DNA from: an uncultured Proteiniphilum sp.
GTDB lineage: Bacteria > Bacteroidota > Bacteroidia > Bacteroidales > Dysgonomonadaceae
NCBI GenBank assembly: GCA_927407015.1
Contig: CAKMJT010000001.1
Span: 1-64,000 of the forward strand
Direction: 5' to 3'
DNA: 64,000 nt
Positions 2,347-64,000 of this stretch are shown in pieces (position 1 is the first letter of the stretch; every line of letters starts with the position of its first letter). Made by a program: the position numbers and the translations under genes. Under the pieces are notes generated by a model. It had not been told where the DNA came from and ran no database searches. It saw only the letters and a list, made by a program, of their open reading frames with translations.

Positions 2347-2349
2347 TGT

Positions 2350-46412: not shown

Positions 46413-47639
46413 TTATTTTTTCCATAAGTTGGGTAAAAAGCGGAAGTATAGCAGATGCCGCCAGGTGGACCAGTCATGGCCGCCGTTGCCGCCGATGTAA
46501 TATTCATGCTCTATCCCGTGATGGGTCAGTGCATCGTGCAGCGCCTGGCAGCGCAGGTTGAAGAAGCCTTCAGCTTCTTTTTTTCCCTGGCCGACAAAGA
46601 GATAATCCACCTTGCTGTTGACCTGCGAATCTTGCAGGAAGTGCTGCAGGGTGTTTTCCGCATCGGTGTCGCCCGCACTGAGGATGCCGAAGTTGGCAAA
46701 CAGGTCGAGTGAACGGAAGCCGATGAACATGCTGTGACGCCCACCCATGGAGAGCCCCGAGATTGCCCTTCCTTTGGGCTCTTTCCGGGTTGAATAACTC
46801 TCATCCACCAGTGGAATCACATGTTCCCGCAGCTCTCTTTCGAACAGGTCGAACGTCAGTTCTGCATGGCGGGGATGGTTCCTGTGGATGATCTGGTTAT
46901 TGGGAATGACGATCAGCATCGGCTCCGCTTTTTCCTCAGCCAAGAGGTTGTCCATGATGAGGTTCACCCTGCCGTCGTAGACCCAGTTGGAGGGCAGCTC
47001 ACCGCTCCCGCCCAGCAGGTAGAGCACCGGGTACTGCTTGTCGCTGCGGTATCCGGGTGGGGTATAGACATACAGCTCACGATCCCCGTTGGTGACGCCG
47101 GAGTGGTAGATATGCCGGACCACATTGCCGTGTGGCACCTGCTTTGCATCATAGTAACCCGGCTTATCTCCATGTACCACCAGTTGACTGTAGGGTGGCA
47201 TAGCGGTGAAGGCTGCGAGGGTGTTGGAGGGATCGGTCATCTGCATCCCGTCCACACGGAAGTGGTAGGCATAGATATCGGGATCCAGTGGACCGATGGT
47301 CAGCGACCATATCCCATCCTCCCCTTTGGTAAAGGGAATGGGCTGATTGCCCTTCCCCAGTGCCGTAAGGATGGCACCGGGAGGGAGCAGTACCTCACCT
47401 GAACCGGGTGCTTTCAGCCGGAAGGTGACGGTCCGGTCAGCATGTACTTCGGGTGAGTTGAGCGGTGCACTGAAAGGAATCAGTCCCCCGGTATCCTGGT
47501 GCGGGTTGTAATCGAGGTTCACATTGGCCTGCTGTGCTGCTGAAGGAAACGAACATTCCAGGAGAAGGCACAGCAGGAACAGGCAATTTTTCGGGATTCT
47601 TTTCTGTTCCCGTAAGCTATTATGTGAAATGAAATTCAT
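46413..47639 (-). CDS. CE1-type esterase (feruloyl/acetyl xylan esterase) with N-terminal CBM48-like domain
   Basis: This 408-aa secreted protein has its start chosen at [17 protein letters not shown], followed by a hydrophobic leader ending in SAAQ. An N-terminal early-set (CBM48-like) domain covers about 45-140. The esterase-D fold follows, with the Ser elbow [13 protein letters not shown] and the catalytic His in [13 protein letters not shown]. Such enzymes remove ferulate or acetate from arabinoxylan. The gene lies next to a stub of a second CE1 gene (47666-47785), so the locus once carried two. Confidence 0.88.
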
Positions 47640-47789: not shown

Positions 47790-50201
47790 TTATAGTTTTA
47801 TGATCAATTTTTTTCCTGTGTAGCGTACGCTCCGGCCGTTTTCCTGACCGGGTTCCATTCCCTTTCCATTTTCGGGTGTCACTAGCGTGATATGGAAGGT
47901 GCGCTCCTGCAGTATACCGGGAAACGCACCCTCGCGATCACCGATGATCAGGTTTTTTTTATCATCATCCCAGCTGAAAGTGATGGTGGAAAAGAGCCCC
48001 TTCTCATAGTTGTAGTTGTCTTTCTCATCCTCGTAGAGGGTGAAGGTGCCGTCAGCACCGGGGTAGACACGTATTTCCAGGCTGTCCCAGGGTTTTTCCT
48101 CAGCATACTGCACCTCCGGACCGATGGGAAGGATGGAGCCGCTCTTCACATAGAGGGGTATGATATCAATGGGTGTCTCACGTCGGATGGTCTGCCCGCC
48201 ATTGAGCAGTTCGCCTGACCAGAAGTCGACCCATTTTGCACCTGTTGGCAGATAGAGTTCCCGGCTGCCGGTGACGGAGTAATCCTCCCGGTTTTCCCGG
48301 GTGTACATCGACTCGGTCACCGGAGCCACCAGTAGCGATTTGCCGAACAGGTACTGATCATTGATATCCAGTACCTTTCTGTCATCCGCAAAATCCATCA
48401 CCAGCGCCCTTATCATGCTGGATCGGTTGCGCGTCACATCCCACGAAGTGGAATAGATGTATGGCAGCAGCCGGTAGCGCAAACGGATAAATTTTTCAAT
48501 GGCATCATACTGTATGTCTCCTTTATGACCGAATTGATAAATCTCACGGGGTGCATCGGCTCCATGGGAACGCATCATGGGTGAGAAAGCGCCGAACTGC
48601 AGCCAACGCACGTAGAGCTCCCGATATGCAGGGTCCTGCAGTTTCCCCGGGAAATTCCAAAGGAAGAAACCGCCGATATCGCTGTTGTAATGTGGTATGG
48701 CGCAAAGAGTTAGATTGAGTCCCCCCGATATCTGATTACGGAGGGCATCCCAGGATGCGACTACATCGCCCGACCAGACGTTGGCACCGTAACGCTGTTG
48801 ACCCGCGAAGGCAGAACGGGTGAGGATGAATACCCGTTTGTCGCTCATCACCTTGCGTTGGTTGGTGTAGACCCCACCTACGGTCATCAGCGGATAGGCA
48901 TTGCGCACCTTCCGGAAGGAGCCCAGATAGGTCTGGTTGTCAAAATCTTCCGGTTTCCAGTCGAGATGGTCTGGCTCGGTGGAGTCCATCCACCAGCCAT
49001 CCATGCCGAGGGAGAGCAGGCCCTTGTTCAGATATTTCCAGTATATTTCTCTTGCCTGTGGGTGATACGCATCATATACCCTCACACCCGAGGGGTAGTC
49101 GGGATTGGGTGGCCACTTCTCTGACCCTGACTGGGGCCAGGTGATGAAGTCCATCAGCATATTGCCCTCCTTCAATTCCCTGTATGGCTTGGTCATGGGG
49201 CCGAACGATGACCAGATGGAGATGATCATATGCGCATGGAGGCGATGTACCTCCTCAACCATCCTTGCCGGGTCATAGAACTCGGGATTGAGGAACTCCA
49301 TGGCGTTCCAGAGGTAGTTGTTGCCCCAGTACTGCCAGTCCTGGATGATACCGTCGAGGGGTATCCCCAGTTCCCTGTATCTCCTGACTACACCCACCGT
49401 CTCATCCTGGCTCTTGTAACGCTCTTTGCTCTGCCAGTAACCATAGCTCCAGAGGGGAAACATGGGTACATCGCCGGTGAGTTCACGCATCGCGGCAACC
49501 ACACCATCGGCATCGCCCCCGTAGAGAAAGTAGTAATCGATGCCGTCACCCACCTCCGAGACGAGGGAGGTCTCCTGTGGCGTGTCTGTGAACTGCGTGG
49601 GTGAGTAGTTGTCCCAGAAGAGACCATATCCCTTCACCGACTGGAAGAAGGGAATGTAATCATCGGTGTTGCCCTGGATCATGCGCAGGCTTGTGTTCCT
49701 TTGATTCATCTTCCCCTGTTGCTGGATCCCCAGACCGTAGATCGCCTCATCCTCCTCCAGCAGAAAAGTCTGTCCCACGCTGTAGGTCGCACTTCCGGCA
49801 TCGTTGAAGGGGCTAAAGGTGCTTCCGGAGGGCTTTTCCGCCAGCAACAGCCTGCCTCTCTCCGTGTGGAAGAGTACCTGCCCGCTGACGCTGTTCACCT
49901 CTACGCTCAACCTGTCGCTGGAGAGCGTGATCCGATCACCTTTCGTCCCGTATCTAAGCGCACTCTTTTCCGCTGTCCTGATCACCGAGAGACTCTCTTT
50001 CGCAAAGTTGGTTCCGGTCGACCATTTCAATATGCGCACGATGACGGGAGAGAAGAATTGTACTTCTATCGTACTGTTGTCAGTGATGATCCTGGCTCCG
50101 CTAACGGTTTTCTGCCACCCGGCGGCATCAGCCACAGGGTGATAAAAGAGCAGGAGCAGCAACAATCCGGTAGCATTCCTGAATGTTTGACAATGTTTCA
50201 T
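47790..50201 (-). CDS. GH31 glycosidase, probable alpha-xylosidase
   Basis: This 803-aa secreted protein, start at MKHCQTFRNATG, has the GH31 layout: N-terminal beta-sandwich, TIM barrel, then proximal and distal beta-domains. The nucleophile Asp is in GWWMDSTEPD and the acid/base Asp in ANVWSGDVVASW. IIQDWQYWG and the region HYNSDIGGFF are substrate-site segments typical of alpha-xylosidases and related GH31 enzymes. It would remove alpha-linked xylose, which is found on arabinose side chains of complex cereal xylans. It is encoded between GH43_12 and the CE1 cluster. Confidence 0.88.
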   Translation of the reverse strand: MKHCQTFRNATGLLLLLLFYHPVADAAGWQKTVSGARIITDNSTIEVQFFSPVIVRILKWSTGTNFAKESLSVIRTAEKSALRYGTKGDRITLSSDRLSVEVNSVSGQVLFHTERGRLLLAEKPSGSTFSPFNDAGSATYSVGQTFLLEEDEAIYGLGIQQQGKMNQRNTSLRMIQGNTDDYIPFFQSVKGYGLFWDNYSPTQFTDTPQETSLVSEVGDGIDYYFLYGGDADGVVAAMRELTGDVPMFPLWSYGYWQSKERYKSQDETVGVVRRYRELGIPLDGIIQDWQYWGNNYLWNAMEFLNPEFYDPARMVEEVHRLHAHMIISIWSSFGPMTKPYRELKEGNMLMDFITWPQSGSEKWPPNPDYPSGVRVYDAYHPQAREIYWKYLNKGLLSLGMDGWWMDSTEPDHLDWKPEDFDNQTYLGSFRKVRNAYPLMTVGGVYTNQRKVMSDKRVFILTRSAFAGQQRYGANVWSGDVVASWDALRNQISGGLNLTLCAIPHYNSDIGGFFLWNFPGKLQDPAYRELYVRWLQFGAFSPMMRSHGADAPREIYQFGHKGDIQYDAIEKFIRLRYRLLPYIYSTSWDVTRNRSSMIRALVMDFADDRKVLDINDQYLFGKSLLVAPVTESMYTRENREDYSVTGSRELYLPTGAKWVDFWSGELLNGGQTIRRETPIDIIPLYVKSGSILPIGPEVQYAEEKPWDSLEIRVYPGADGTFTLYEDEKDNYNYEKGLFSTITFSWDDDKKNLIIGDREGAFPGILQERTFHITLVTPENGKGMEPGQENGRSVRYTGKKLIIKL

Positions 50202-50309
50202 CGTAATCTGTTTTTCGTTGCCCAGCTGCACCGGGATCGGGTATAGAATCAATGGATCTGCAGATTCAGTGATCTGCGGTATGCTGGTTCTCCGGCAAGC
50301 CGGTTTGAT

Positions 50310-52034
50310 CTATTCCGGGAGAGCATCGTTCATCGTGGTGGCATGCAGTCCGATCAGGTTGCCGGTGAAGCCGCCCGCCACATCGGTGGAGAGGATGTCT
50401 CCGGAGACCGTTTCACCCAGATTGTGAAAGGTCTTTCCGTCTGTTGCATAGTTGAAGCGGTAAGCATCTCCCTTTGCATTGATTTGTAGTGAGAACGGTT
50501 TCTCCGTATCAATAGGCGTGCTGGCCATGATGGTTGAGAATCCTTTCTCTGTGCGCTGCAGCACCAGGTAATCCTGCTTCCCTTTCCGGGTGACACCAAA
50601 GAGATAATGAAACCGCTCGCTCTGATAGCAGACCATGCCGGCCAGCTCCTTTTCCGAGGATGGTTTGTACTGCACGGTGGTGGTGGCAGTGAAATGTCTG
50701 TGCTGTTGGCGGTGGAAGAGGGTAGAGGTGGGAGCTGTCTCCTTGAGGTTGACCGCGAACGGTGTGAGGAGAATTCCTTTTTTGTCTGCTTTAATGAACT
50801 CTTCCCGGGGACCTCTCACCCCTATCCAGCGGTAGTCCGGCGCTGTCGACCGGAAATCATCCTGAAAGGTGAAATTACCGTTGGGAAAGAACTCCTCCCT
50901 GCCGGTTTTATTCGACACGCCTTCCGGCATTTTCAGCTTCGGCATCATGGGCACCAGCCCGTTCTCAAACACGGGGTACCTGCCACTCCAGTCAACCGGA
51001 AGGATAAATGTTTCACGACCGGTGTTCACCCTGTTCTGTTCATTGGGGCGGATAGCCAGGAAAACACCGTAATATTTCCCGTCGGGACCCTCAACCAGGT
51101 CGGCATGTCCTGCCCAGTCCACCTTGTTTTCCCGGTCGGGATGCAGGTAACGCTGCGACAGAATGGGGTTGTTGGCAGCCGGCGTATAGGGACCCTTGGG
51201 GTGATCGCTGGTGAAGATCACCTCACTGTGCCAGTCACCGGTACCCCCTTCGGCACACATCAGGTAATAGGTACCCTCTTTTTTGTAGATATGGGGTGCC
51301 TCAATCCAGATCGGTTGCCGGGTAATATCTACTCCGCCATCAACAATAATCTGGTCGCTGCCGGGGATCACCTGATCCTTCTCCATGTCATACTCCCATA
51401 TCTTGATCACCCGGTGACCCTCATACAGCTCTTTGCCTCTGTCGGGTGCATCATTGTGGACCACATAGGCCTTGCCATCGTCATCGAAGAAGAGAGAGGG
51501 GTCGATACCGCTGAAATTGAGTTTCTGCACCTCGCTCCATCCCTTCAGGGGGTCTTTTGTTTTCACCACCATATTTCCAATGTTGCCGGCAATCTGGGTG
51601 GTGATCATGTAAAAAGTATCATTGTTGGGGTTGTACTTGATGGCCGGAGCGTAGATCCCCGCACTGATGCCGCTGTCATGCACGATCAGCTGCGATTTCC
51701 GGTCGAGAACATGGCCAATCTGCTTCCAATTCACCAGGTCGTTGGAGTGGAAGATGGGGACTCCGGGGAACATGGCAAAAGAGGAAGTTACAAGGAAATA
51801 ATCTTCTCCTTTGCGGGTAACGGAGGGGTCTGGATAACAGCCCTGCAGGATCGGATTATAGAATTCATCCGGTTGCAGCGGGTTCTCTTCGTACACAGGA
51901 TCTTCACCCTGATAGATAAATTGACTGAAAACGGGGTGGTTTGAGCTAACTCTCTTTTGGGCGTTGATCCCGGTAACGGTAAACGACAAAGTTAATGCAG
52001 TCAGCTGTAGCGTGAGATTCATTGTTCGGTTCAT
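50310..52034 (-). CDS. GH43 (subfamily 12-like) beta-xylosidase/arabinofuranosidase
   Basis: This 574-aa secreted enzyme has a signal peptide ending in VTGINAQ and a GH43 propeller. The base Asp is in GCYPDPSVTRKGEDY, the second Asp in SGIDPSLFFDDDG and the acid Glu in IWIEAPHIYKKEG. A C-terminal concanavalin-like beta-sandwich (about 385-570) follows, as in GH43_10-12 xylosidases. It would hydrolyse xylose or arabinofuranose from xylooligosaccharides in the periplasm. It is the first gene downstream of the hybrid sensor gene, 120 bases away. Confidence 0.9.
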   Translation of the reverse strand: MNRTMNLTLQLTALTLSFTVTGINAQKRVSSNHPVFSQFIYQGEDPVYEENPLQPDEFYNPILQGCYPDPSVTRKGEDYFLVTSSFAMFPGVPIFHSNDLVNWKQIGHVLDRKSQLIVHDSGISAGIYAPAIKYNPNNDTFYMITTQIAGNIGNMVVKTKDPLKGWSEVQKLNFSGIDPSLFFDDDGKAYVVHNDAPDRGKELYEGHRVIKIWEYDMEKDQVIPGSDQIIVDGGVDITRQPIWIEAPHIYKKEGTYYLMCAEGGTGDWHSEVIFTSDHPKGPYTPAANNPILSQRYLHPDRENKVDWAGHADLVEGPDGKYYGVFLAIRPNEQNRVNTGRETFILPVDWSGRYPVFENGLVPMMPKLKMPEGVSNKTGREEFFPNGNFTFQDDFRSTAPDYRWIGVRGPREEFIKADKKGILLTPFAVNLKETAPTSTLFHRQQHRHFTATTTVQYKPSSEKELAGMVCYQSERFHYLFGVTRKGKQDYLVLQRTEKGFSTIMASTPIDTEKPFSLQINAKGDAYRFNYATDGKTFHNLGETVSGDILSTDVAGGFTGNLIGLHATTMNDALPE

Positions 52035-52154: not shown

Positions 52155-55100
52155 TCACAACTTGGAAGGAGATTTACCAAAATAAGCTTTAAAGGCAGCA
52201 CTAAAATACTTTACACTGGAGAAACCACATAACTCACTCACCTCTGTGATGGTATATGTACCCGACTGAATTAATTTCAAGGCATGATTCAACCGGATGC
52301 TTCTGATGAAATCGATAGGCGACAGGTCCGTCAGCGATTTGATCTTTTTATAGAGAAGGGATGAACTGACGTTCATTTCTGACGCGAAGGTCTCTTTGTT
52401 GAACGCTGAATTATCCATATTGGCATGTACCACAGACACTGCTTTCCTGACAAATTGATCGTCCAGTTCATTCAGGTAGATAGGTTCACCCTCTTCCTCA
52501 TCGATGAGTCGAAGGGCTTTTTCTCTGACCGTCCTACGGTTTTGAATGATATTGGATATGCGTTGAAGCAGCAATGTCATATCGAACGGTTTTGTCAGAT
52601 AATCATCCGCACCCAGCCCCAGTCCGTGTAACTGCTGCGATTTCTCATTCAATGCGGTCAGCAGAATAACCGGTATATGGGAGGTTTCGTAGGTTGATTT
52701 GATGAGCCGGCATAATTCAAAACCATCCATATTGGGCATCATGACATCCGAGATAATCAAATCGGGCAATTTTTTCTGCACCATACTCCAGGCCTCCTGA
52801 CCATCTTTTGCGACAGCTATTTTGTATTTGCGTTGTAATGATTGCTGCAGAAACTTTTTTAAATCATCATTGTCTTCCACAATCAGGAGTTGTTCTTTTT
52901 GATCGCTGTCGGGTTGGTTTTCCGGGATGGATTCGTCCTTGATGAGGAGTTGCGAGGCATGATTTTCATTTCGTGGTGCACCCGCAGAGAATGATGGAGA
53001 AGTCGCCGTGACCTCCTTATAGGGTATGATGATGCGAAACAGTGAACCTTCATTCTCTTTGCTCTCCAGCGATACGGTACCATTGTGCATGGCTACGTAG
53101 TTCTTGACCAGCAACAGACCGATACCCGAACCCACAATGGTTGAGTTGACCACATTGTCGCCTCTGTAAAACTCTCTGAAGAGTTTTTTCCGGGCATTTT
53201 CTGAAATTCCCAGACCATGATCCTTTACCTCCAGCATCCATTTATTTGGGTCACTGGTCAGTTTGATCTCAATCTCACCCTCCGGATGTGAATATTTGAT
53301 GGCATTCGATATCAGGTTGTCGATCACTTTCTCAATTTTCAGTTCATCCACTGCCGTCACATAGGACTCTTTGTCAGCGCTGAACAGAAGCTTTATCCCG
53401 TGTTTCAGGGCTGCTGCATCGAACATTGACTTTCGCTGACTTACAATCCTAACCACATCGGTCATCACAAAAAAGGCCTGCCCTTTTCCGATATCCACCT
53501 TCTGGAAATCGAGCAATTGATTGGCCACATAGGATAGACGTTCAGACTGCTCCGTGGCCAGATTGAGGTAATAACGTCCTTCACCCGACAGGTTTTTTTC
53601 CTTGTTCAGCTCCTCAATAGGTGCATTGATAAGGGTCAGGGATGTGCGGATGTCATGAGCCATGTTGGTGAAAAAACGGATCTTATCTTCTGCATGGTGT
53701 TGTCTGATCTGGTTAATATAATACCTGAGGGCAAAGAACAGTATGGATACCATTACAAAGAATACCCCCAGACGGAACAAGACTGTATTCCACCAGGGAG
53801 GGGTGATATGAATCAGTAGTGATCGCTCGTTGATAATCTGTTTCATTGAGCTGTCGTACATGCGTATTTTCAGCGTATAGTCGCCACTGGGCATACTGGC
53901 ATAGGTGATAGCCCTGGAGTTGGCTGGCTGGGTCCACTCCCCGTCAATCCCTTCCATCTTCCATGAGAATTTGGAATAGAGAGCGGTGGTGCCGATGGGT
54001 AGAAAATCCAGCGTCAATGTATTTTGATTATACTTCAGTGATATCTCCTGTAATTCATCCAGCGGAGAGTCGATTGTCACAAAAGGACTGTTTCGCAATG
54101 AACGGCCTGAAATGACGATATCCTGAAAATAAATTCTCCCTTTGGAAGGTGAAAAGAGTACAGCGTCGGGTTCGAACATCAAGGCACCGCTGCTGGTACC
54201 CCAGATGAGTTGTCCGTTCGTTAATTGCAGTGATGCGTTCTGATTGAAAGAGACATTGAAAAAAGGAGGCAGCGATGAGAAAACAAGCATGTTTTTCTCC
54301 TCCATATCAAATTTACAGAGTCCCGATTCTGTCCCCAGCCATAAGTATTTCCCTTCCCTGAGGATACTGTTCACATAGTTAGAGGGCAATCCGGTATCGG
54401 TTGTGAATTTTTCAACCGTATTGTCTCTCAGGTTGTACCGCACCAGCCCATCTCCCGAGGTTGCCATCCATACATTATCACCAATGATGATCAGATCATA
54501 CAGGAGATAACCATCCAGTATGGTGCGGGTCTGGGCTGTTTGTATGTCCAGCAGCGATAATCCGTAGGTACAGGCCAACAGGAGATTACCGGGGGAGTGT
54601 TCGGCAAAAGCATAGACCGGTTGAAAAGGATATTCCATAAAACGGTTTTCTCTTTCTATATAACGGAAGATCTGACCCAGGGGACTCCCCATCCAAAGAT
54701 CACCGCGGCTGTCTTTGAAAATATCAAAGATATAATTGTTGGTCAGGGATGAATGGTCATCTTCGCTCGAATAATGGGCTATCTCCCTGCCGGATGTACC
54801 ATCGATGACGTATACGCCGGATGAGTAGGTCCCGGCCCAGATATTGCCTTTCCTGTCCTCACACAGAGAGAGGAACACTTGTGCCTGCTCCTGTTCGTTC
54901 TGATAAAACGTACGCCAGCTGTCTGTTGAGACATACCAGCAACTCACTCCGTTATTGGTTGCAAACCAGATGTTACCCCGATTGTCTTCAATGACTTTGT
55001 TTACGTTATCATTACTCAGTGAGTTGGCATTGTTGATTTGATGTGTGATCTGAGTAATGTCAGCCGATCCCTGGTCAAAATAGGACAATCCACCACTATA

Positions 55101-56042
55101 GGTGCAAATCCAGACACGTTTATGCGGGTCAAGAAAAATATCATAAACCCCATTGCCCTTCAACGACAAGGGATTATCTGCATTTTCCTTATAGATGTTC
55201 AATACCTTGCTGCCGTCCTTTGACAATTCCCAAATACCCTGTCCGTCTATCCCGACCATCAGTGTTGAATCTGTGTTCGCTTCAATGGCGTAAATCGGTT
55301 GTTTGGGAAAAGGATGCAGCAGTGATTCCCTAAAAATATTTCTCTTCACATCAAACAAATATAGGCCATCAGAACTTGTCCCTACCCATAGCTTATCATC
55401 CGCTTTATTGTAAAAGAGTTTTGTGACTTTAACCGTATTATTGTCCGTGTATTTGAATATCTGGCGGTCTGAAAGTGAATGGGTGTTCATGAGCCAGAAT
55501 CCGTTATTGGTCCCCATCAACAGATGAATATCATCGTACCATTCCAAATCCTGTACTTCGGCATATTTCTCTTTCCCCAAGTGGATCAGCTTGTTATCCT
55601 GAAATTTATACAAACCAGTAGTGGCCGCAATCAGTAAAGAGCCATTGTTGTCAATTACGATCCTGTTTAGCACCAGATGACTGTCATTCAGTGGCTTGCG
55701 GATATCTACCAACAGGTCAAACCGGTCAAAAACAGCATTATAATAAAAAATCTGTCCGTTGTTGGTATATGCCAGCAACGAATCCTTTTCATACAGTAGT
55801 TTTGTATTGATGATGTTGGGTGTTTCGTATGGCAACTGATAGATATGGTAACTGTTATCCGTTAGCCGAAGCACACCAATTTTGGAGGAAGCCCAGATAA
55901 ATCCGTTCTTGTCCCTGCAAACAGAAGCGATCTCTCTCATGCTGATTCCATGAATGGTGTTGATATCATAGAACTTTACATTGGAGGAATAGCTGACAAG
56001 AATGGAAAAAAAGAAAGCGGCTATGAATAATCTGGTTTTCAT
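52155..56042 (-). CDS. Hybrid two-component system sensor/AraC regulator (HTCS)
   Basis: This single 1295-aa protein senses glycan fragments and activates the locus. In order it has a signal peptide, two seven-bladed regulatory propellers (about 20-690, with repeats such as GFIWASSKIG and DLWMGSPLG) and a Y_Y_Y domain. A transmembrane segment lies near residue 785 (LGVFFVMVSILFFALRYYI). The histidine kinase core follows (FTNMAHDIRTSLTLI; HATPase with GSGIGLLLVKNYV), then a receiver domain (ISDVMMPNMDGFELC, DDYLTKPFD) and a C-terminal AraC domain. The usual Pro after the phospho-His helix motif (HDIRTP) is Ser. It sits mid-locus between GH43_12 and GH3. Confidence 0.96.
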   Translation of the reverse strand: MKTRLFIAAFFFSILVSYSSNVKFYDINTIHGISMREIASVCRDKNGFIWASSKIGVLRLTDNSYHIYQLPYETPNIINTKLLYEKDSLLAYTNNGQIFYYNAVFDRFDLLVDIRKPLNDSHLVLNRIVIDNNGSLLIAATTGLYKFQDNKLIHLGKEKYAEVQDLEWYDDIHLLMGTNNGFWLMNTHSLSDRQIFKYTDNNTVKVTKLFYNKADDKLWVGTSSDGLYLFDVKRNIFRESLLHPFPKQPIYAIEANTDSTLMVGIDGQGIWELSKDGSKVLNIYKENADNPLSLKGNGVYDIFLDPHKRVWICTYSGGLSYFDQGSADITQITHQINNANSLSNDNVNKVIEDNRGNIWFATNNGVSCWYVSTDSWRTFYQNEQEQAQVFLSLCEDRKGNIWAGTYSSGVYVIDGTSGREIAHYSSEDDHSSLTNNYIFDIFKDSRGDLWMGSPLGQIFRYIERENRFMEYPFQPVYAFAEHSPGNLLLACTYGLSLLDIQTAQTRTILDGYLLYDLIIIGDNVWMATSGDGLVRYNLRDNTVEKFTTDTGLPSNYVNSILREGKYLWLGTESGLCKFDMEEKNMLVFSSLPPFFNVSFNQNASLQLTNGQLIWGTSSGALMFEPDAVLFSPSKGRIYFQDIVISGRSLRNSPFVTIDSPLDELQEISLKYNQNTLTLDFLPIGTTALYSKFSWKMEGIDGEWTQPANSRAITYASMPSGDYTLKIRMYDSSMKQIINERSLLIHITPPWWNTVLFRLGVFFVMVSILFFALRYYINQIRQHHAEDKIRFFTNMAHDIRTSLTLINAPIEELNKEKNLSGEGRYYLNLATEQSERLSYVANQLLDFQKVDIGKGQAFFVMTDVVRIVSQRKSMFDAAALKHGIKLLFSADKESYVTAVDELKIEKVIDNLISNAIKYSHPEGEIEIKLTSDPNKWMLEVKDHGLGISENARKKLFREFYRGDNVVNSTIVGSGIGLLLVKNYVAMHNGTVSLESKENEGSLFRIIIPYKEVTATSPSFSAGAPRNENHASQLLIKDESIPENQPDSDQKEQLLIVEDNDDLKKFLQQSLQRKYKIAVAKDGQEAWSMVQKKLPDLIISDVMMPNMDGFELCRLIKSTYETSHIPVILLTALNEKSQQLHGLGLGADDYLTKPFDMTLLLQRISNIIQNRRTVREKALRLIDEEEGEPIYLNELDDQFVRKAVSVVHANMDNSAFNKETFASEMNVSSSLLYKKIKSLTDLSPIDFIRSIRLNHALKLIQSGTYTITEVSELCGFSSVKYFSAAFKAYFGKSPSKL

Positions 56043-56223: not shown

Positions 56224-59200
56224 TTATTTATTCATCTGATCATAGGTGATACCCCTGTTTTTTATGTGAAAATAGTCAAAGGAAACAGTAAATGGAGAAT
56301 TCGGTTTGGTCGTATCGGAATCAAACCAGAAGGTGCTGGTCATGCTCTGCGTGATGATGCCGTCACAGGCAATCAGACCCACCCTGACATCCCGCAATGT
56401 AGCATCGGCCCTTCCGAGCTCTTTGTACTCCCTGCCGTCGGTTGAATAGAAGGCAGTGTAGCGGGCCCCCTCCTTGATCAGTCGCAGGTAGAGGTGTTGA
56501 TCACCGGTGATCATCTCCTTCAGATCGAACGATGCCACCGATCGAGCAATATCATTCTCCTCCACCAGCAGGTCGATGGTGCCCGGCTGTGGCCCTTTCT
56601 GGCGGGTGGTCTTGGTTACTGCACGGAGCATCAGCTTCACGAAGTTGTGGTCGTCCTGCCATGCAATGATTCCTGCATTCTCCGGTTGTGAGGGAGCCCG
56701 TGAGCCAAATAGTTTTGTCTCTATGGTCCAGTCGTTATTGGCACTCTGCAGGAGCACGTTGCGGGCGTTGTTGCTCTTCTCTGAGATATCCCCCTTTTCG
56801 GTGGTGATGGTGAGTGATCCGGGATGGGCTGTGAAGGAGTGGTTGACTCTGTTTTCCCTGATCCATTTCCACTGTGATCCGGGTTGGCTCCCGTTGAATT
56901 CATCGCTCAGAGAGGGGCGATCGAAATGCAGATAGTAACTGTTCTCTTCCATCGTATGGTAATCAATAAAGCGTATGATGGCTGTGCCGGGAATGGTAGA
57001 CGCCTGTTCTACTTCCACGCCGATTCCTTCGCTTATAGCTTCTGCTTTCACTACCGGAATGGCGGATTGTTCCTTCATCAGGAAGCTGTATGCCTTCACT
57101 TCCGGTTTGAACGACGGAAGCGGTATGCCGTTCACGCTGATGGTGGCAGGTGTCAGGTCGGGAACCACCTTGACCGGGTAGCTGTCGGATACTGTGGTGC
57201 CGTTGTAAGTAACGTAGGCGAAGACGGAAGCAACTCCCGGGAGTTCTGCTGTGATTGTTCCGTTTTGGTCCACACTCACCACCGATGGGTTGTTGCTTTT
57301 ATAGACGATGTGTGACTCATCGATTGCGATAAAGCTGTCGTCCAGCAGTGTTGCCGTCAGGCGGGTCTGTGCCGTTTCTCCCGGTTGCAGGATTATATTA
57401 TCCGTCTCTGCGACTACCGTCTCCAATATCGGCTTGAATTGTCCCTTCATCACCGCTTCCACACTGCCCCTGATGTCGCGGGATGAAGCGCCTACCTCGA
57501 AGGTGTAGTTTCCCTGGTCGAATGTGTTGTGGTTTTGCTCCGCCTCCCAGTACCAGAGATCAGCGCAATCGATGTCGATGTAAACGGTTTTGGTCTGTCC
57601 GGCGGGGATGGTGACCCTTTTGAACCCTTTCAACCGTTTGAGCGGCCGTCCTTTCGCCTGGGCATCGGCTGTCCTGAGGTAGACCTGTACAATCTCGTCG
57701 CCGTCCATTGCTCCGTTGTTGGTGACATCTAAGGAGATGGTTATTTTGTCATAGGGAGTGATCTCTTTCTTACTGATACTGAAGTCACCATAATCAAAAG
57801 AGGTATAGGAGAGTCCGTATCCGAATTCGTAGGAGACCTCCTTGTCGAAATACCAGTAGGTCCTGCCGTTCCGGGTCTCATCACCCCGTAGTGCGTAATC
57901 GCCGAACTCAGGAAGGTCATTGACGGAGCGATACCAGGTGACGCTACTCTTTCCGCCGGGATTGACTTCGCCGAACAGGATCTTTGCCATGGCCGTTCCC
58001 TGTGCCTGACCGTTATAGCCGGTGTAAATCAATCCGGGAATGTGCGGGTTCTGCTTGATGGCTTCCACCTCCACCATGCCCATTGTTTGCATCACCACGA
58101 TGGTATTGGGATTGACAGCAGCCACCGCCTCTATCAGCTCCATCTGATTGCCAGGAAGGGAGAGGGAGAAGCGGTCGGATTCCTCTCTGCCGGTATTCTG
58201 GTCTGTGCCCACGAATATGAGTGCCACATCGGCTGCGGCCACCCTGTTGAGTGTCTCGGGGTCTACTGACTCCGGTTGCGGCTCCCGAAAGACAACATAA
58301 AGATCCTGCGGTCCTGTGATACCCAGTGTGTTTACCTTTACCGGAAGGGTAACCCCTCTGCCGAAGGAGCGGTCACCCTCTGCCCTTTCAACCCGCTGTG
58401 AAGCAATGATATTACCGGTAGCCGCACCCACTCTTACCTCAATGGTACCTCCACTTTGTGCCACATTCAATTGCAGGATCAGCGAATCGAGATGGGTCAG
58501 GTTGATGTTGTGGTAGGCTGTCCAGTCGCCATCCTTGATCCCCTGCAGGGTGGGGTTGCCAAACCGTTCCGTGGCGATGATGCCGGGAGCAGCCGCATCG
58601 AAGTCGGTGGCGTTGTACTCTTTGCGGTCACCGCTGCTGCTGCGTGTGGTGAAGCTGCGCAGTGTAAAGAAATCGGTTCTACGGCTCGTATTCCCTCCCT
58701 CACCGTGGAACAGCTCGATGGGGAGATTGTGTTGTTCGATATAAGTACGCAATCCCTGCAGGTGGGAGATGCTCAGGTGTCCTTCCACCGGACCGGAGTA
58801 ATCACCCAGCTCCACCCTGTCGGCCTGTGGTCCCAGGACGGCGATAGTCCTGATCTTCGCGGACTGTAACGGGAGTGCTTTTGTGGCGGTGGATGCCACC
58901 GGTTCATTTTTCAGCAGGACGGGGCTTTTCGTAGCGATTTCCAGTGCCAGATCGTTGTGCGCAGGGTCGTTGATGATGTCGGGTCTGAGCCTGGAGTAGG
59001 GGACGATGGCAAGAGGGTCAAACTCGCCCAGCCGCATGCGGATGGTCATCATATTGATCAATGCCCTGTCGATATCAGCCATGGTGATCAGGCCCTGTTG
59101 CAGTGCTTCCAGCGCATTGCTCTGGTACTCTCCCCCGCAGTCAGAGTCTACTCCGGCCTTCAAACCGGCAGCAGTGGCCTCCACGCCATCCTTCAGGAAG

Positions 59201-60045
59201 TGATGTCCCTGGAAGATGTCGGAGATGGCTCCGCAGTCGCCCGTCACATATCCATGCATACCAAATGTTTTTCTGGCAATGGAGTCTACCAGAAATTTGC
59301 TGGCAGAAACAGGAACTCCGTTCACCGCATTGTAGGCCGTCATGATGGAAGGGAGATTATCTTTCTCTATCAAAGCTTTGTAAGGGGTGAGATAGAACTC
59401 ACGCATATCCCTTTCGTCCAGCTCCGAGTTGCCGTTGTGGCGGTTGTATTCACTGTTGTTGGCGATATAGTGTTTGCCGGTGGGTACTGTTTTCAGGTAC
59501 ACGGGGTCATCACCCATCATGCCTCTCACAAAGCCGCCGGCCAGCTCGGAAACCAGAAAGGGGTCTTCACTGTAGCTCTCGGCGGTACGGCCCCAGCGGG
59601 GATCTCTCGCCGGTTCGATGACGGGAGACCAGTAGGTGAGGGTGAAGATACGTTCGTTGTTGAAACCACGGGCCTCATCTGCAATCACGGAGGCCTCTTT
59701 CCGTATCAGCTCCGGATCCCAGGTGCTGCCCACGGCGATGCTGTTGGGGAAGGAGGTGGCTGTCATCCCGGCATTGTTGTTCCTGCCTACCACCCCGTGC
59801 AGTGCTTCGCCCCACACATCATACTTGTTGATGCCCAGTCGCGGCACCGGTGACATGGTGTTCCCCAGCAGTGTCTGCTTCTCTTCCGGTGTCAGCCGTG
59901 AGACCAGATCGGCTGCCCTCTCCTCAAAAGAGTAGGCCGTGTTCAGGTAGATAGGCAGATTGCTCTTTGCCGGAGCAGTGGTTTGTGCCGGCAGGCACAG
60001 GATAGATAGAATCAACAGGAAGGTGCTGAAAATGATGTGTCTCAT
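56224..60045 (-). CDS. Large multimodular GH3 glycosidase, probable beta-xylosidase
   Basis: This 1273-aa secreted enzyme has a signal peptide (LILSILCLPAQ), then the GH3 barrel with GRTAESYSEDPF, KHYIANNSEYNR and the nucleophile Asp in YVTGDCGAISDIF. The second GH3 domain is interrupted by a CBM6-like insert at about 480-610. A fibronectin-like GH3 domain follows. After that come unusual extra modules: a Big-type immunoglobulin-like domain (around 880-960, ITAELPGVASVFAYV) and a C-terminal concanavalin/laminin-G-like domain (about 1040-1270). Ordinary GH3 xylosidases are 750-900 aa. The additions suggest carbohydrate or surface binding. Confidence 0.9.
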   Translation of the reverse strand: MRHIIFSTFLLILSILCLPAQTTAPAKSNLPIYLNTAYSFEERAADLVSRLTPEEKQTLLGNTMSPVPRLGINKYDVWGEALHGVVGRNNNAGMTATSFPNSIAVGSTWDPELIRKEASVIADEARGFNNERIFTLTYWSPVIEPARDPRWGRTAESYSEDPFLVSELAGGFVRGMMGDDPVYLKTVPTGKHYIANNSEYNRHNGNSELDERDMREFYLTPYKALIEKDNLPSIMTAYNAVNGVPVSASKFLVDSIARKTFGMHGYVTGDCGAISDIFQGHHFLKDGVEATAAGLKAGVDSDCGGEYQSNALEALQQGLITMADIDRALINMMTIRMRLGEFDPLAIVPYSRLRPDIINDPAHNDLALEIATKSPVLLKNEPVASTATKALPLQSAKIRTIAVLGPQADRVELGDYSGPVEGHLSISHLQGLRTYIEQHNLPIELFHGEGGNTSRRTDFFTLRSFTTRSSSGDRKEYNATDFDAAAPGIIATERFGNPTLQGIKDGDWTAYHNINLTHLDSLILQLNVAQSGGTIEVRVGAATGNIIASQRVERAEGDRSFGRGVTLPVKVNTLGITGPQDLYVVFREPQPESVDPETLNRVAAADVALIFVGTDQNTGREESDRFSLSLPGNQMELIEAVAAVNPNTIVVMQTMGMVEVEAIKQNPHIPGLIYTGYNGQAQGTAMAKILFGEVNPGGKSSVTWYRSVNDLPEFGDYALRGDETRNGRTYWYFDKEVSYEFGYGLSYTSFDYGDFSISKKEITPYDKITISLDVTNNGAMDGDEIVQVYLRTADAQAKGRPLKRLKGFKRVTIPAGQTKTVYIDIDCADLWYWEAEQNHNTFDQGNYTFEVGASSRDIRGSVEAVMKGQFKPILETVVAETDNIILQPGETAQTRLTATLLDDSFIAIDESHIVYKSNNPSVVSVDQNGTITAELPGVASVFAYVTYNGTTVSDSYPVKVVPDLTPATISVNGIPLPSFKPEVKAYSFLMKEQSAIPVVKAEAISEGIGVEVEQASTIPGTAIIRFIDYHTMEENSYYLHFDRPSLSDEFNGSQPGSQWKWIRENRVNHSFTAHPGSLTITTEKGDISEKSNNARNVLLQSANNDWTIETKLFGSRAPSQPENAGIIAWQDDHNFVKLMLRAVTKTTRQKGPQPGTIDLLVEENDIARSVASFDLKEMITGDQHLYLRLIKEGARYTAFYSTDGREYKELGRADATLRDVRVGLIACDGIITQSMTSTFWFDSDTTKPNSPFTVSFDYFHIKNRGITYDQMNK

Positions 60046-60100: not shown

Positions 60101-61024
60101 TTATTCCGACATATTTTTGATATAGGGCAGTTCAGGCATTACGCCGAAACCGTAGAATTTTTGTGCATTGATGCCTAAAAAAAGGGCTTTTTCTGTTTCT
60201 GAGAGGAGCGATGACCGGAGGATGAAATCATACGACATCCGGTAGGTGATGGCCACCATCGTACGGGGGTAATCGGATCCCCACATCAGCTTGTCGATCC
60301 CCACCAGGCCGATCGCTTCGCGGATGGCCCGGACGGCCCCTGAAAAGGGGTAAAACTCTTCGTGGAAGAGCCAGGTGATTCCCCCTGATTCAATCATCAC
60401 CTGTTCGTGCCGTGCCATCTTGATCTGCTCCTGCCACTCGCTTCGTGTTACCATGCCGAAATGACCGATGGCAATCTTCAGTGAGGGGCAGGTGGCAATG
60501 ATCTCCTCCATCTCTGCCACCTGGGTGGCACCATCGGCCAGGTCGATGGAGAGGATGATCCCCTTCTCCTGCATCAGGTGAAAGAGCTGCATCATCTCAT
60601 CACCGGTGAGCCATGTCCTGCCATTGTCGGTGATCAGCCGTTGTGCGGGTATCTTAATGGCCCTGAACCCTTTTTCGATCAGTTGCTCAGCCTCCCGGTA
60701 GAAACCGGGCTTGCGCAGGTCCACCATGCCGCAGCAGAGAAACCGGTCGGGGTAGCGCTGTTGGACTTCCATCAGATAGTCGTTCTGGTTCCCGTCGATA
60801 TACTCCTGTGTGATCACGCTGGCTGCCACCTGTGCATAATCCATGTTGGAGAGAAATATCTCCGCGCTGTTCCTGCCGTCGGTCATGTAGGGCGGCAGCA
60901 TCTGCCGCACCTCACCCATGAAGAGCGACCTGCCATTCGTCATTGTTTTGATCTGCTGGCCGTTCACCTCCGCATCCTGAGACAGCCAGAGGTGTGCATG
61001 TGCATCTATCAGGAGGGTACTCAT
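60101..61024 (-). CDS. Amidohydrolase-superfamily sugar lactonase
   Basis: This 307-aa cytoplasmic TIM-barrel protein has the metal motif LIDAHAHLW at the N-terminus, GFRAIKIPAQ with the Lys region, the His in IAIGHFGM, and the final Asp in LMWGSDYPRT. This fits the amidohydrolase-2/COG3618-like group that includes L-fucono- and L-galactono-1,5-lactonases. Its start overlaps the stop of the zinc dehydrogenase gene by four bases (ATGA). Position after GH95, an aldo-keto reductase and a dehydrogenase supports hydrolysis of an L-galactonolactone or L-fuconolactone. The exact sugar is inferred. Confidence 0.75.
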   Translation of the reverse strand: MSTLLIDAHAHLWLSQDAEVNGQQIKTMTNGRSLFMGEVRQMLPPYMTDGRNSAEIFLSNMDYAQVAASVITQEYIDGNQNDYLMEVQQRYPDRFLCCGMVDLRKPGFYREAEQLIEKGFRAIKIPAQRLITDNGRTWLTGDEMMQLFHLMQEKGIILSIDLADGATQVAEMEEIIATCPSLKIAIGHFGMVTRSEWQEQIKMARHEQVMIESGGITWLFHEEFYPFSGAVRAIREAIGLVGIDKLMWGSDYPRTMVAITYRMSYDFILRSSLLSETEKALFLGINAQKFYGFGVMPELPYIKNMSE

Positions 61025-62043
61025 GATTCAAAGCCGATTAGATACCTGAAAACCTTACCGGGGTTTGATGCCCAATGCTCCAGTGCAGCCTGTGCCTCTT
61101 CGGGGGCATAGATGCCGGAGATAAGCCTGTCTACCGGGCAGCGCCCCTCCCTGAGATAGGCGATGACAGCCCGGAAGTCGGTCGGGAGGGCGTTGCGTGA
61201 CCCCCTGATGTCCAGCTCTTTCTTCACGAAATACTGGGTGTCGAAAGCGATCTCCTCCTTCGCATAACCGATATAAACCACTCTGCCGGTGAAGGCAGCG
61301 GCAGCGATGGCTGTGCGATAGGTCTCCGGACGGCCCACCGCCTCAATCACCACGTCAGCACCCCGTTGTTCGGTGATCTCCCTGATCCGTTCCTTCACAT
61401 CCTCTTTCGAAGAATCGATGACCTCGCGGGCTCCCAGTGAAGCTGCCAGGGACAGCTTCTGTTCATCAAGGTCCACGGCTATCACCCCGGCGCCCCTGTT
61501 TGCGGCGCGGATGATGGCTCCCAGTCCAATCATACCGCAGCCGATCACCATCACGCTATCGGTATCTTTCACCCCTGCACGGTCCACGGCGTGGAATCCG
61601 ACACTCAACGGCTCCACCAGGGCCATGTCACGCACGGAGAGCAGGTCGTCGGTGAGCACCTTCTCCCAGGGCAGCGTGATATACGCCGCCATGGCTCCGT
61701 TGCGTTGTACACCCAGTGTCTGGTTGAATTCGCAGGCGTTGGGGCGGTCGTTCAGGCAGGCTGGACACTTGCCGCAGCTGGAGTAGGGGTTGAAGGTGGT
61801 GTGCATGCCGGGGCGAAGGTGGGGAGGCACATCAGCGGCTACTGCCTCAATCACTGCCCCTATCTCATGACCGGGAATGATCGGATAACGAGCCAGGGGA
61901 TTGGCTCCCCTGAAGGTGTTGAGGTCGGAACCACAGAAACCGACATATCTGATCTTCAGCAGCACCTCACCAGTGCTGATCTCCGGTTTGGGTTGCTGGA
62001 TAAGCTCAATGGCTCCCGGTCCGGTTATTTGAACTGTTTTCAT
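61021..62043 (-). CDS. Zinc-dependent medium-chain dehydrogenase, possible L-galactonate dehydrogenase
   Basis: This 340-aa enzyme has catalytic zinc ligands in VGFCGSDLN and IPGHEIG, the four-Cys structural zinc loop SSCGKCPACLNDRPNAC, and the NAD motif VIGCGMIGLGA. The C-terminal segment VKKELDIRGSRNALPTDF is shared with the sorbitol/L-galactonate-5-dehydrogenase branch (LgoD-like). In the cassette it would oxidise the aldonate made by the neighbouring lactonase, giving D-tagaturonate if the sugar is L-galactose. An L-fuconate or generic polyol substrate cannot be excluded. It is translationally coupled to the lactonase gene and 26 bases from the aldo-keto reductase. Confidence 0.75.
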   Translation of the reverse strand: MKTVQITGPGAIELIQQPKPEISTGEVLLKIRYVGFCGSDLNTFRGANPLARYPIIPGHEIGAVIEAVAADVPPHLRPGMHTTFNPYSSCGKCPACLNDRPNACEFNQTLGVQRNGAMAAYITLPWEKVLTDDLLSVRDMALVEPLSVGFHAVDRAGVKDTDSVMVIGCGMIGLGAIIRAANRGAGVIAVDLDEQKLSLAASLGAREVIDSSKEDVKERIREITEQRGADVVIEAVGRPETYRTAIAAAAFTGRVVYIGYAKEEIAFDTQYFVKKELDIRGSRNALPTDFRAVIAYLREGRCPVDRLISGIYAPEEAQAALEHWASNPGKVFRYLIGFES

Positions 62044-62069
62044 TTGTTGTTTTTTTTCTATTGATGCGT

Positions 62070-63008
62070 TCAGCTGTTCACCCAGCTATCCCTAAATCCC
62101 GGCGCTAAAATGGTTCGTATTTCCTCCAACAACTCCCTGTCGAGAGGTGTACCGGCGTAGCTGATGGTTCTCAATACATTCTCCGGGCTGGAGGAACTGA
62201 ACAGGGTGGTGGCAATACGCGGATTGTCCGTGCTGTAACTTACCGCCAGCTGTTCAATGGAGACTCCTTTCGATTTGCAGTAGTCGACTGCCTTTCTGGC
62301 GAGCCGCTGCAGGGCTGCCGGTGCGGGGTGCCACGATGGTGCCCCGCGTTCGGTCAGCAACCCCATGGAGTAGGGTGAAGCATTGATGACTCCCACCTTG
62401 TGTGCCTCAAAAAAATCGAGGTAGTCCGTCAGCGAGTCATCGTTCAGCGTGTAGTGGCAAAAGGAGAGGACACTCTCCACGATTCCTGCCGGCACCTGTT
62501 CGATGACATACCGGAAGTGACGCAAATTCAGGTTGGTGATACCGATATGTCTCACGATACCCCGGTCGCGCAGTGCTGCCAGGGCCGGCAATGTCTCGTG
62601 ACAGACCTGTTCCAGGTCGGCAAACTCGATGTCATGCACATTGATCAGATCGATCTGCTCCACACCCAGCCGTTCCATGCTCTCATAGACGCTCTCCCGC
62701 ACCCTGGAAGCGGAGTAATCCCACTGGTTCACCCCATCCCTGCCGTAGCGGCCCACTTTGGTGGAGAGATAGTAACGGCTTCGTTCCACCCCTCTCAATG
62801 CCTTTCCCAGCACGTTCTCTGCTTTCAGGTGGCCGTAATAGGGAGAGACATCGATGAAGTTGATACCCTGCTCCAGGGCGGTGTGTACCGCACGGATACC
62901 CTCTTCCTCCTTCATCGGGTGGAAGACAGCACCGAGGGAGGAAGCACCGAAGCTGATTTTGGAGAGCTTCATCCCGGTTTGGCCCAATTCGCGGTATTCC
63001 ATATTCAA
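62070..63008 (-). CDS. Aldo-keto reductase, probable L-galactose/L-fucose 1-dehydrogenase
   Basis: This 312-aa cytoplasmic AKR begins MEYRELGQTGMKLSKISFG. The catalytic tetrad is visible: Asp and Tyr in NFIDVSPYYG, Lys in YLSTKVGR and His in LINVHDIE. The family branch includes plant L-galactose dehydrogenase and bacterial L-fucose (D-threo-aldose) dehydrogenase, both of which oxidise the sugar at C1 to a lactone. Its place between an alpha-L-fucosidase-family gene (GH95) and a sugar lactonase strongly suggests that this is the first oxidation step for the sugar GH95 releases. Confidence 0.8.
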   Translation of the reverse strand: MNMEYRELGQTGMKLSKISFGASSLGAVFHPMKEEEGIRAVHTALEQGINFIDVSPYYGHLKAENVLGKALRGVERSRYYLSTKVGRYGRDGVNQWDYSASRVRESVYESMERLGVEQIDLINVHDIEFADLEQVCHETLPALAALRDRGIVRHIGITNLNLRHFRYVIEQVPAGIVESVLSFCHYTLNDDSLTDYLDFFEAHKVGVINASPYSMGLLTERGAPSWHPAPAALQRLARKAVDYCKSKGVSIEQLAVSYSTDNPRIATTLFSSSSPENVLRTISYAGTPLDRELLEEIRTILAPGFRDSWVNS

Positions 63009-63048
63009 TCCTATCTGTTATAAGTGATGGGCGGTTTATGATACCTGC

Positions 63049-64000
63049 CTACTTTTTCTTTATCTGATATTGCTTGCCCGCTTCGGTCCGGAGATCATAC
63101 TCATAGACTTTCCGGTGTTCATACTTCACGGCCACAACCGCTTCTTCACTGATCAGGGGTGCTTTCACTGCAGCCTTCTGAAAGAGGGGGTTGGAATTTT
63201 CTCCTGATGCCGGTATGAGTCCTTTTCCCTCCAGCGGCACATAAGCGCGTATGCGCAGATTCCCTCCCAGCCGGGAGATGAAAGTGGCTTCCTGCAAAGT
63301 GCCTGCCATCCAATCCATGGCTACTTCGAACCCTCCGCGGGCGATGATGCCCTTGACTGTACCGCTCTCCCACCTCTCCGGCAGTGCCGGTAACAGGTGC
63401 ACCGCTCCATCGTGACTCTGCAGCAGCATCTCCGCCACACCGGCTGTCAGGCCGAAGTTGCCGTCGATCTGAAAGGGGGGGTGGGCCGTGAAGAGGTTGG
63501 GATAGGTTCTCCCGTTTCTGTTGCCATCGGGACCGGCCAGCGTCAGCATGTTTTGGATGATACGGTAGGCATGATCACCATCCAGGAGACGTGCCCAGAG
63601 GTTCACCTTCCAGCCGATGGACCAGCCGGTGGCCTGGTCACCGCGATAGAGCAGCGACTGTCTGGCGGCGGCAAACAGTTCCGGTGTGGCGTAGGGGGAA
63701 ATCTGGTTGCCGGGATAGAGACCATAGAGGTGCGACACATGGCGGTGTTCGTTTGCAGGGTCATCCACATCGTCCAGCCACTCCTGCAGCTGTGCGTGTC
63801 TGCCGATCTGCATCGGTGGCAACCTGTCGGCCATGTTGCGCAGCTGACGGCTGAAGGCCGGATCCCCGCCCAGCAGGTCATTTGCTGCGGCTGTACGGGT
63901 GAACAGGTCGAACAGCAACTGGTTGTCCATGGTGGTACCGGCCGTCACGGGCCCATGTTCGGGTGATACGGAGGGGCAGGCCACCATCCATCCGTTGTCG
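63049..64000 (-). CDS. GH95 alpha-L-fucosidase/alpha-L-galactosidase (5' end outside window)
   Basis: This is the C-terminal part of a GH95 enzyme. The frame runs off the window edge at 64000. The visible part contains [10 protein letters not shown], the [18 protein letters not shown] catalytic-region motif, [39 protein letters not shown] and [12 protein letters not shown]. These are all strongly conserved in GH95. The family removes terminal alpha-L-fucose or, in some xylan loci, alpha-L-galactose. Downstream genes encode sugar oxidation enzymes rather than fucose isomerase and kinase. This favours a sugar used oxidatively, such as L-galactose. Confidence 0.92.

What the first reader, a model, noticed from the sequence alone, without database searches (positions are those of the whole stretch)
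60101..64000. GH95-linked oxidative cassette for L-galactose (or L-fucose) inside a xylan locus
Four adjacent, partly overlapping genes encode a GH95 enzyme, an aldo-keto reductase of the L-galactose/L-fucose dehydrogenase branch, an LgoD-like zinc dehydrogenase and an amidohydrolase-type sugar lactonase. I recall an equivalent set described for L-galactose in Bacteroides vulgatus (L-galactose to lactone to L-galactonate to D-tagaturonate), and L-galactose caps are known on maize glucuronoarabinoxylan. Here the release enzyme and oxidation pathway sit in the same locus as the xylan debranching enzymes. The product D-tagaturonate would join the hexuronate route also fed by GH67/UxuA.
Basis: partly seen in the sequence, partly recalled or inferred. 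Interest (0 to 1): 0.75.

Follow-up and report, generated by a model that had tools for sequence, protein, structure and literature searches.

The report
L-galactose catabolic cassette in xylan locus
A Proteiniphilum-like bacterium carries, inside its large xylan-digesting gene cluster, an enzyme likely to clip rare L-galactose caps off cereal xylan next to three genes likely to turn that sugar into a central metabolite; each part is known, but their union in one locus, apparently by a horizontally acquired block, is not reported in the papers I could search.

Summary
Confirmed and mostly right. On the minus strand lie, in order, GH95 (830 aa, running past the window edge), an L-galactose-dehydrogenase-type aldo-keto reductase, a Zn dehydrogenase of the LgoD/Bvu0222 kind and a cog3618-type lactonase, inside a xylan PUL resembling Bacteroides ovatus PUL-XylL. 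The full GH95 groups with full support with the proven corn-xylan alpha-L-galactosidase BACOVA_03438, not with a characterised xyloglucan fucosidase. The three oxidative genes form a cassette conserved across Bacteroidales. Its AKR co-occurs with the L-galactosidase-type GH95 clade (25 of 29 AKR+ genomes versus 30 of 364 without, p=2e-20). In other genomes it also lies in rhamnogalacturonan-II loci, another plant glycan with L-galactose. L-galactose is therefore much likelier than L-fucose; the genome has FucI/FucP elsewhere. In sister species GH95 abuts GH3 without the cassette. The window's copy does not belong with the genus's resident cassettes (AU p 0.002, 0.006, 0.02), so it looks acquired as a block. 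The genome lacks the UxaA and UxaB families but has UxaC, UxaE and a mannonate oxidoreductase, so D-tagaturonate probably reaches KDG via UxaE and the locus's own UxuA. Activities, transfer and transport are inferred. New variant of a known kind.

The parts
63049..64000 (-). GH95, predicted alpha-L-galactosidase (C-terminal 316 aa in window; whole gene to contig position 65541)
   Evidence: PF22124/PF21307; best PDB match 4ufc = BACOVA_03438, 1015 bits, next 710; 100%-supported clade with 4ufc; T370/N372/N374/E501 equivalents kept
62070..63008 (-). Aldo-keto reductase, predicted L-galactose 1-dehydrogenase (Bvu0219 type)
   Evidence: PF00248; top five PDB matches are all 'L-galactose dehydrogenase', best 7lh6, 422 bits; single copy in genome
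61021..62043 (-). Zn-dependent medium-chain dehydrogenase, predicted L-galactonate 5-dehydrogenase (Bvu0222/LgoD-like role)
   Evidence: PF08240/PF00107; 33% identity to E. coli LgoD over 308 aa; four structural-Zn Cys and GHE motif kept in alignment A2
60101..61024 (-). Amidohydrolase (cog3618-type), predicted L-galactono-lactonase (Bvu0220 type)
   Evidence: PF04909; AF2 model pLDDT 91; Foldseek top hits 4i6k and 4dlf/4do7, a COG3618 amidohydrolase of B. multivorans; HxH, His188, Asp251 invariant in 41 relatives
56224..60045 (-). GH3 beta-xylosidase-like with CBM6 and GH43_C2-like domains; next gene downstream; in sister species it abuts GH95 directly
52155..56042 (-). Hybrid two-component system regulator (HTCS) of the PUL
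50310..52034 (-). GH43 with C2 domain
47790..50252 (-). GH31
44959..46425 (-). GH43-CBM6
42951..44897 (-). GH97
40478..42946 (-). GH127
36125..37342 (-). Glucuronoyl esterase (PF22244)
32318..35428 (-). SusC-like transporter (judged from its place beside SusD and its size; no family search was run on it)
30279..32297 (-). SusD-like lipoprotein
25829..27235 (-). MFS_2 sugar transporter
24659..25804 (-). GH10 xylanase
21472..23592 (-). GH67 alpha-glucuronidase
20167..21339 (-). UxuA mannonate dehydratase, the proposed entry point of the L-galactose carbon into KDG
   Evidence: TIGR00695/PRK03906 well over cut-off
18674..20146 (-). XylB-like FGGY kinase
   Evidence: TIGR01312, 321 bits, below cut-off 380
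17304..18635 (-). XylA xylose isomerase
   Evidence: TIGR02630, 686 bits

Best explanation
The four genes are a release-and-use module for the L-galactose caps of cereal-type glucuronoarabinoxylan, embedded in a xylan PUL of a Proteiniphilum-like bacterium (Dysgonomonadaceae). Predicted steps: exported GH95 removes terminal alpha-L-galactose from xylo-oligosaccharide side chains; in the cytoplasm the AKR oxidises L-galactose to the 1,5-lactone, the amidohydrolase opens it to L-galactonate, and the Zn dehydrogenase oxidises C5 to D-tagaturonate. D-tagaturonate is then most likely epimerised to D-fructuronate by UxaE, reduced to D-mannonate by an SDR oxidoreductase (both in one operon on contig C9, with UxaC and a KDG-kinase-like gene) and dehydrated to KDG by UxuA, which lies in the xylan locus itself. 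The AKR-ADH-lactonase block appears to have been acquired as a unit and inserted between GH95 and GH3. Shown here: gene content, homology, phylogeny, co-occurrence, synteny, presence or absence of downstream families. Inferred: all substrates, the order of reactions, location of the proteins, co-transcription, transport.
For: GH95: best PDB match 4ufc = BACOVA_03438, which releases only L-Gal from corn xylan (PMC4491172); 100% clade with it, apart from XacAfc95 fucosidase and the genome's two other GH95s. AKR: all top PDB matches are L-galactose dehydrogenases, and 7lh6 nests among the Bacteroidota triad AKRs. ADH: LgoD homologue. Lactonase: fold and catalytic residues of cog3618 lactonases. 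Co-occurrence of the AKR with the L-galactosidase-type GH95 clade: family 32/46 versus 4/55, p=3e-11; within genus p=8e-7; order 25/29 AKR+ genomes, p=2e-20; genomes with only other GH95s show none (3/34 versus 1/21). RG-II context: triad 3' of a BT_1020-like gene (L163), and sister-clade GH95 flanked by apiosidase, GH78 and GH28; BT1010 GH95 releases L-Gal from RG-II chain A (PMC10154630). Independent GH95-triad neighbourhoods in L032 and L173/L053. UxaE route: no UxaA (0/39 genus genomes), no Mannitol_dh family, UxaE present (28/39), operon UxaC-UxaE-SDR mannonate oxidoreductase-kinase. Foreign block.
Against: No activity was measured. GH95 is only 55% identical to BACOVA_03438, and no single residue predicts L-Gal over L-Fuc (Thr370 is kept in a fucosidase). 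GH29 fucosidase-family genes lie near the triad in 17 of 80 loci. No permease sits beside the triad here. Co-occurrence counts share ancestry between genomes. The AU result for the lactonase is modest (p=0.02), G051 of the same genus has an AKR in the window's group, and base composition does not mark the block as foreign. The UxaE step is on another contig, away from the PUL.
Confidence: 0.82

Rival explanations
1. The cassette serves L-fucose: GH95 is an alpha-L-fucosidase and the three enzymes make L-fuconate and onward products.
For: GH95 and GH29 are mainly fucosidase families; GH29-family genes lie near the triad in 17 of 80 loci and a FucP-like permease in 17; a weak hit of the lactonase to the L-fucono-1,5-lactonase model, 30.5 bits against a cut-off of 400.
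Against: GH95 groups with the L-galactosidase and not with XacAfc95; the genome has two FucI and a FucP elsewhere; the cassette has no fuconate dehydratase and ends in a C5 dehydrogenase that would give a deoxy-ketoacid with no known outlet from fuconate (established pathway knowledge, inference); triad co-occurs with the L-Gal clade only; some GH29s are L-galactosidases too (BpGH29, PMC12316285).
Confidence: 0.08
2. The triad is a general L-galactose (or L-glucose/L-galactose) utilisation set that lies in the xylan locus by accident and is not tied to GH95.
For: [quoted passage not shown]
Against: Short gaps and shared strand with GH95; same placement in three species; strong co-occurrence with the L-Gal GH95 clade and separate linkages in L032, L173 and L053.
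Confidence: 0.08
3. (Outlet only, compatible with the best explanation.) D-tagaturonate goes by the E. coli/B. vulgatus route (UxaB, UxaA) with genes missed by an incomplete assembly or carried by a different enzyme family.
For: Genome is 94.7% complete; published routes use UxaB/UxaA (PMC12632266).
Against: UxaA family absent from all 39 genus genomes, including near-closed ones; UxaE present in 28 of 39 and in an operon with UxaC and a mannonate oxidoreductase.
Confidence: 0.12

Closest known systems
L-galactose pathway of Phocaeicola (Bacteroides) vulgatus, Bvu0219-Bvu0222 (Hobbs et al. 2014; known here only through PMC12632266 and from memory)
   Same: Same three enzyme types for L-galactose to D-tagaturonate; B. 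finegoldii and B. gallinarum loci show the AKR-lactonase-permease-ADH layout that the Bvu numbering implies.
   Different: Here the triad sits in a xylan PUL beside GH95, in the order AKR-ADH-lactonase, without a permease, and the downstream route appears to be UxaE/UxuA rather than UxaB/UxaA.
Bacteroides ovatus PUL-XylL with GH95 alpha-L-galactosidase BACOVA_03438 (PMC4491172)
   Same: GH95 of the same clade, in a xylan locus that also has GH31, GH97, GH43, GH3, GH10 and an HTCS.
   Different: The passages read describe no L-galactose oxidation genes in PUL-XylL; the present locus adds the triad, GH67/UxuA and XylAB.
RG-II locus with GH95 alpha-L-galactosidase BT1010 (PMC10154630)
   Same: GH95 L-galactosidase acting on a plant glycan; the triad lies in or near RG-II-type loci in G035, G054 and others.
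   Different: Different glycan; the GH95s of such loci form a sister clade (BT1010 itself was not in the tree).
E. coli lgoD (yjjN) L-galactonate oxidoreductase
   Same: Same enzyme superfamily and predicted reaction.
   Different: Only 33% identical; E. coli continues by UxaB/UxaA.
Luteolibacter LG18 lgu cluster (PMC12632266)
   Same: Related L-galactose dehydrogenase and an NAD-dependent L-galactonate dehydrogenase.
   Different: Includes tagaturonate reductase and altronate dehydratase, no glycosidase; dual L-glucose/L-galactose route.

Membership tests
GH95 alpha-L-galactosidase (BACOVA_03438 type) | GH95 catalytic domain with Asn372/Asn374 and general acid Glu501 | tested here: met
   PF22124/PF21307; residues kept
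GH95 alpha-L-galactosidase (BACOVA_03438 type) | Phylogenetic grouping with a proven L-galactosidase apart from proven fucosidases | tested here: met
   100% SH-aLRT clade with 4ufc, apart from 7kmq; few characterised references available
GH95 alpha-L-galactosidase (BACOVA_03438 type) | Thr370 as specificity marker | tested here: inconclusive
   Thr is present, but also in the fucosidase XacAfc95
GH95 alpha-L-galactosidase (BACOVA_03438 type) | Releases L-galactose, not L-fucose | not testable with these tools
   Needs assay
L-galactose oxidative pathway (Bvu0219/0220/0222) | AKR of the L-galactose dehydrogenase branch | tested here: met
L-galactose oxidative pathway (Bvu0219/0220/0222) | cog3618 lactonase with metal-binding HxH and catalytic Asp | tested here: met
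L-galactose oxidative pathway (Bvu0219/0220/0222) | Zn dehydrogenase forming D-tagaturonate | tested here: inconclusive
   Family and zinc motifs met; specific substrate not predictable; Bvu0222 sequence itself not in hand
L-galactose oxidative pathway (Bvu0219/0220/0222) | Downstream UxaB and UxaA (outlet, not part of the three-gene core) | tested here: not met
   PF04295 and PF01232 absent; UxaE present instead
Xylan PUL (XylL-like) | SusCD, HTCS and xylan-active GH families in one locus | tested here: met
L-fucose oxidative pathway | Fuconate dehydratase with the dehydrogenase and lactonase | tested here: not met
   None in the cassette or its neighbours annotated here; not searched genome-wide

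The most novel reading that the evidence does not exclude
A complete sugar-catabolic block was horizontally transferred into the middle of a xylan PUL, exactly next to the glycosidase that frees its sugar, displacing the resident copy, and it drains through a UxaE-UxuA bypass not described for L-galactose, so that xylose, glucuronate and L-galactose from one polysaccharide are released and started on catabolism by one locus.
Probability: 0.5. Interest if true: 0.55.

Novelty: new variant of a known kind. Interest (0 to 1): 0.45.

Why it matters
L-galactose caps are among the features of complex cereal xylan, and the fate of the released sugar in xylan degraders is not described in the papers I could search. 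This locus links release to use, gives a testable genomic marker (AKR-ADH-lactonase) for L-galactosidase-type GH95 enzymes, a family where sequence motifs fail to separate L-galactosidases from fucosidases, and shows a PUL apparently growing by taking in a metabolic block for one side-chain sugar.

Tried and rejected
Using Thr370 as a specificity marker was dropped. Plain phmmer of the lactonase against the PDB gave only a spurious hit to a pentatricopeptide repeat protein; a profile and a fold search were needed. Fetching the 2014 B. vulgatus paper failed. Promoter and terminator scans gave no more hits than shuffles and say nothing about operon limits. GC content as a sign of transfer was uninformative. 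A first AU test included a doubtful member (L030) and was replaced. P. vulgatus genes themselves were not among the loci, so B. finegoldii and B. gallinarum served as stand-ins.
Full report
WHAT IS THERE. The window is the first 64 kb of a 139,677-base contig (C1) of a 3.18 Mb draft genome, 94.7% complete. Its nearest named relatives are Proteiniphilum-like Dysgonomonadaceae (L006). The four genes of the finding are confirmed on the minus strand: GH95 (whole gene 63049-65541 on the contig), AKR 62070-63008, Zn-ADH 61021-62043 and amidohydrolase 60101-61024. The gaps are about 40 and 26 bp, and ADH and lactonase overlap by 4 bp. GH3, HTCS and GH43 follow downstream; upstream of GH95 lie GH31, a SASA esterase, a gene without a strong Pfam hit, GH8, a GH43-like gene, a GH5 and a GH10-like gene (the GH10-like, the GH31 and one GH43-like call here are from reading the sequence and from homology, not from a family search). 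The window also holds GH97, GH127, GH43-CBM6, esterases, glucuronoyl esterase, SusCD, MFS, GH10, GH67, UxuA, XylB and XylA. This is a large xylan PUL.

SUBSTRATE: GH95. Its best solved relative is 4ufc, BACOVA_03438, at 1015 bits, against 710 for the next, a xyloglucan fucosidase. BACOVA_03438 released only L-Gal from corn xylan (PMC4491172). On a tree of 47 GH95s the window enzyme is in a 29-row clade with 4ufc (100% SH-aLRT); XacAfc95 and the genome's two other GH95s fall outside. Identity to 4ufc is 55%. Asn372, Asn374 and Glu501 are kept, and so is Thr370, but Thr370 does not discriminate, since XacAfc95 has it and is a fucosidase (PMC8245568).

SUBSTRATE: TRIAD. The AKR's five best PDB matches are all named L-galactose dehydrogenase; 7lh6 nests among the Bacteroidota triad AKRs, nearest B. 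finegoldii and B. gallinarum and others. The ADH is 33% identical to E. coli LgoD and keeps the zinc ligands. The lactonase was the weakest call by sequence; its AlphaFold model (pLDDT 91) matches cog3618 amidohydrolases best, including 4dlf/4do7, which I recall as the L-fucono-1,5-lactonase of Burkholderia multivorans; the metal and catalytic residues are invariant in 41 relatives. By established chemistry these give L-galactose, lactone, L-galactonate, D-tagaturonate, the route reported for P. vulgatus (Hobbs 2014, cited in PMC12632266).

CO-OCCURRENCE. GH95s in the family fall into two score groups (about 800 bits and above; 663 and below). The AKR occurs in 32 of 46 genomes with the upper group and 4 of 55 without (p=3e-11), within the genus in 14 of 16 against 2 of 23 (p=8e-7), and in an even sample of 393 Bacteroidales genomes 25 of 29 AKR+ genomes have the upper GH95 against 30 of 364 AKR- (p=2e-20). 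Genomes with only the lower group show no link (3/34 versus 1/21). These tests do not correct for shared ancestry beyond the within-genus check. In other genomes the triad lies in a rhamnogalacturonan-II setting: 3' of a BT_1020-like gene in G035, while the sister-clade GH95 is flanked by apiosidase, GH78 and GH28. RG-II chain A is the substrate of the other known GH95 L-galactosidase, BT1010 (PMC10154630). Separate GH95-triad neighbourhoods exist in L032 (GH29-AKR-lactonase-FucP-like-GH95-ADH), L173 and L053.

L-FUCOSE. The genome has FucI with FucP on C29 and a second FucI on C6. GH29-family genes near the triad in 17 of 80 loci keep fucose alive as a rival, but some GH29s are L-galactosidases (PMC12316285).

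WHERE THE CARBON GOES. The genome lacks PF04295 (UxaA) and PF01232 (UxaB/UxuB family); UxaA is missing from all 39 genus genomes. It has UxaE (28 of 39 in the genus) in an operon with glucuronate isomerase, an SDR D-mannonate oxidoreductase (PRK08277, over cut-off) and a KDG-kinase-like gene. The likeliest path is D-tagaturonate, D-fructuronate, D-mannonate, KDG, the last step by UxuA at 20167-21339, inside the xylan locus.

ORIGIN. In G079, G070, G060 and G056, whose GH95s are 78-84% identical, GH95 abuts GH3 with no triad, in an otherwise similar locus; these genomes carry a triad elsewhere. The window genome has one AKR copy. In trees of all three genes the window, L006 and L018 copies group with Tannerellaceae and others, not with the nine resident triads of the genus; holding them together is rejected at p 0.0023 (AKR), 0.0064 (ADH) and 0.021 (lactonase). 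Block acquisition with loss of the resident copy is the simplest reading; an old second copy lost in other species is not excluded. In L018 the GH3 is gone as well.

VERDICT. Each component is known; the joining of L-galactosidase and oxidation triad in a xylan PUL, its apparent arrival as a block, and the UxaE/UxuA outlet are not described in the papers held here. New variant of a known kind.

Noticed in passing
G000 contig C9, L151:7948-15779: Hexuronate operon UxaC-UxaE-SDR mannonate oxidoreductase-kinase-Gnd-nickel-dependent putative hexonate epimerase (NF052594); the epimerase's substrate is unknown.
   Followed up: partly
L162, L176, L177 (sister species): A gene about 30% identical to the window's GH97 lies between GH95 and GH31 in sister species, but is absent at that place in the window genome, L006 and L018.
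   Followed up: no
L032:8414-16884: Soil Bacteroidota cassette GH29-AKR-lactonase-FucP-like-GH95-ADH: a compact L-galactose or L-fucose module with two glycosidases and a permease.
   Followed up: partly
L017:13346-14884, and GH29 genes in 16 further AKR loci: GH29-family genes recur beside the triad; they are candidates for further GH29 L-galactosidases.
   Followed up: no
window 1315-5251: L-rhamnose genes RhaT, RhaA and RhaB next to the xylan locus.
   Followed up: no
window 27271-30107: A GH115 C-terminal domain of 283 aa stands alone beside a 662-aa SASA esterase; no full GH115 catalytic domain was seen there.
   Followed up: no
window 15839-17137: Class II aldolase of 432 aa, about twice the length of the matched models, divergent from XylA; function unclear.
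   Followed up: no
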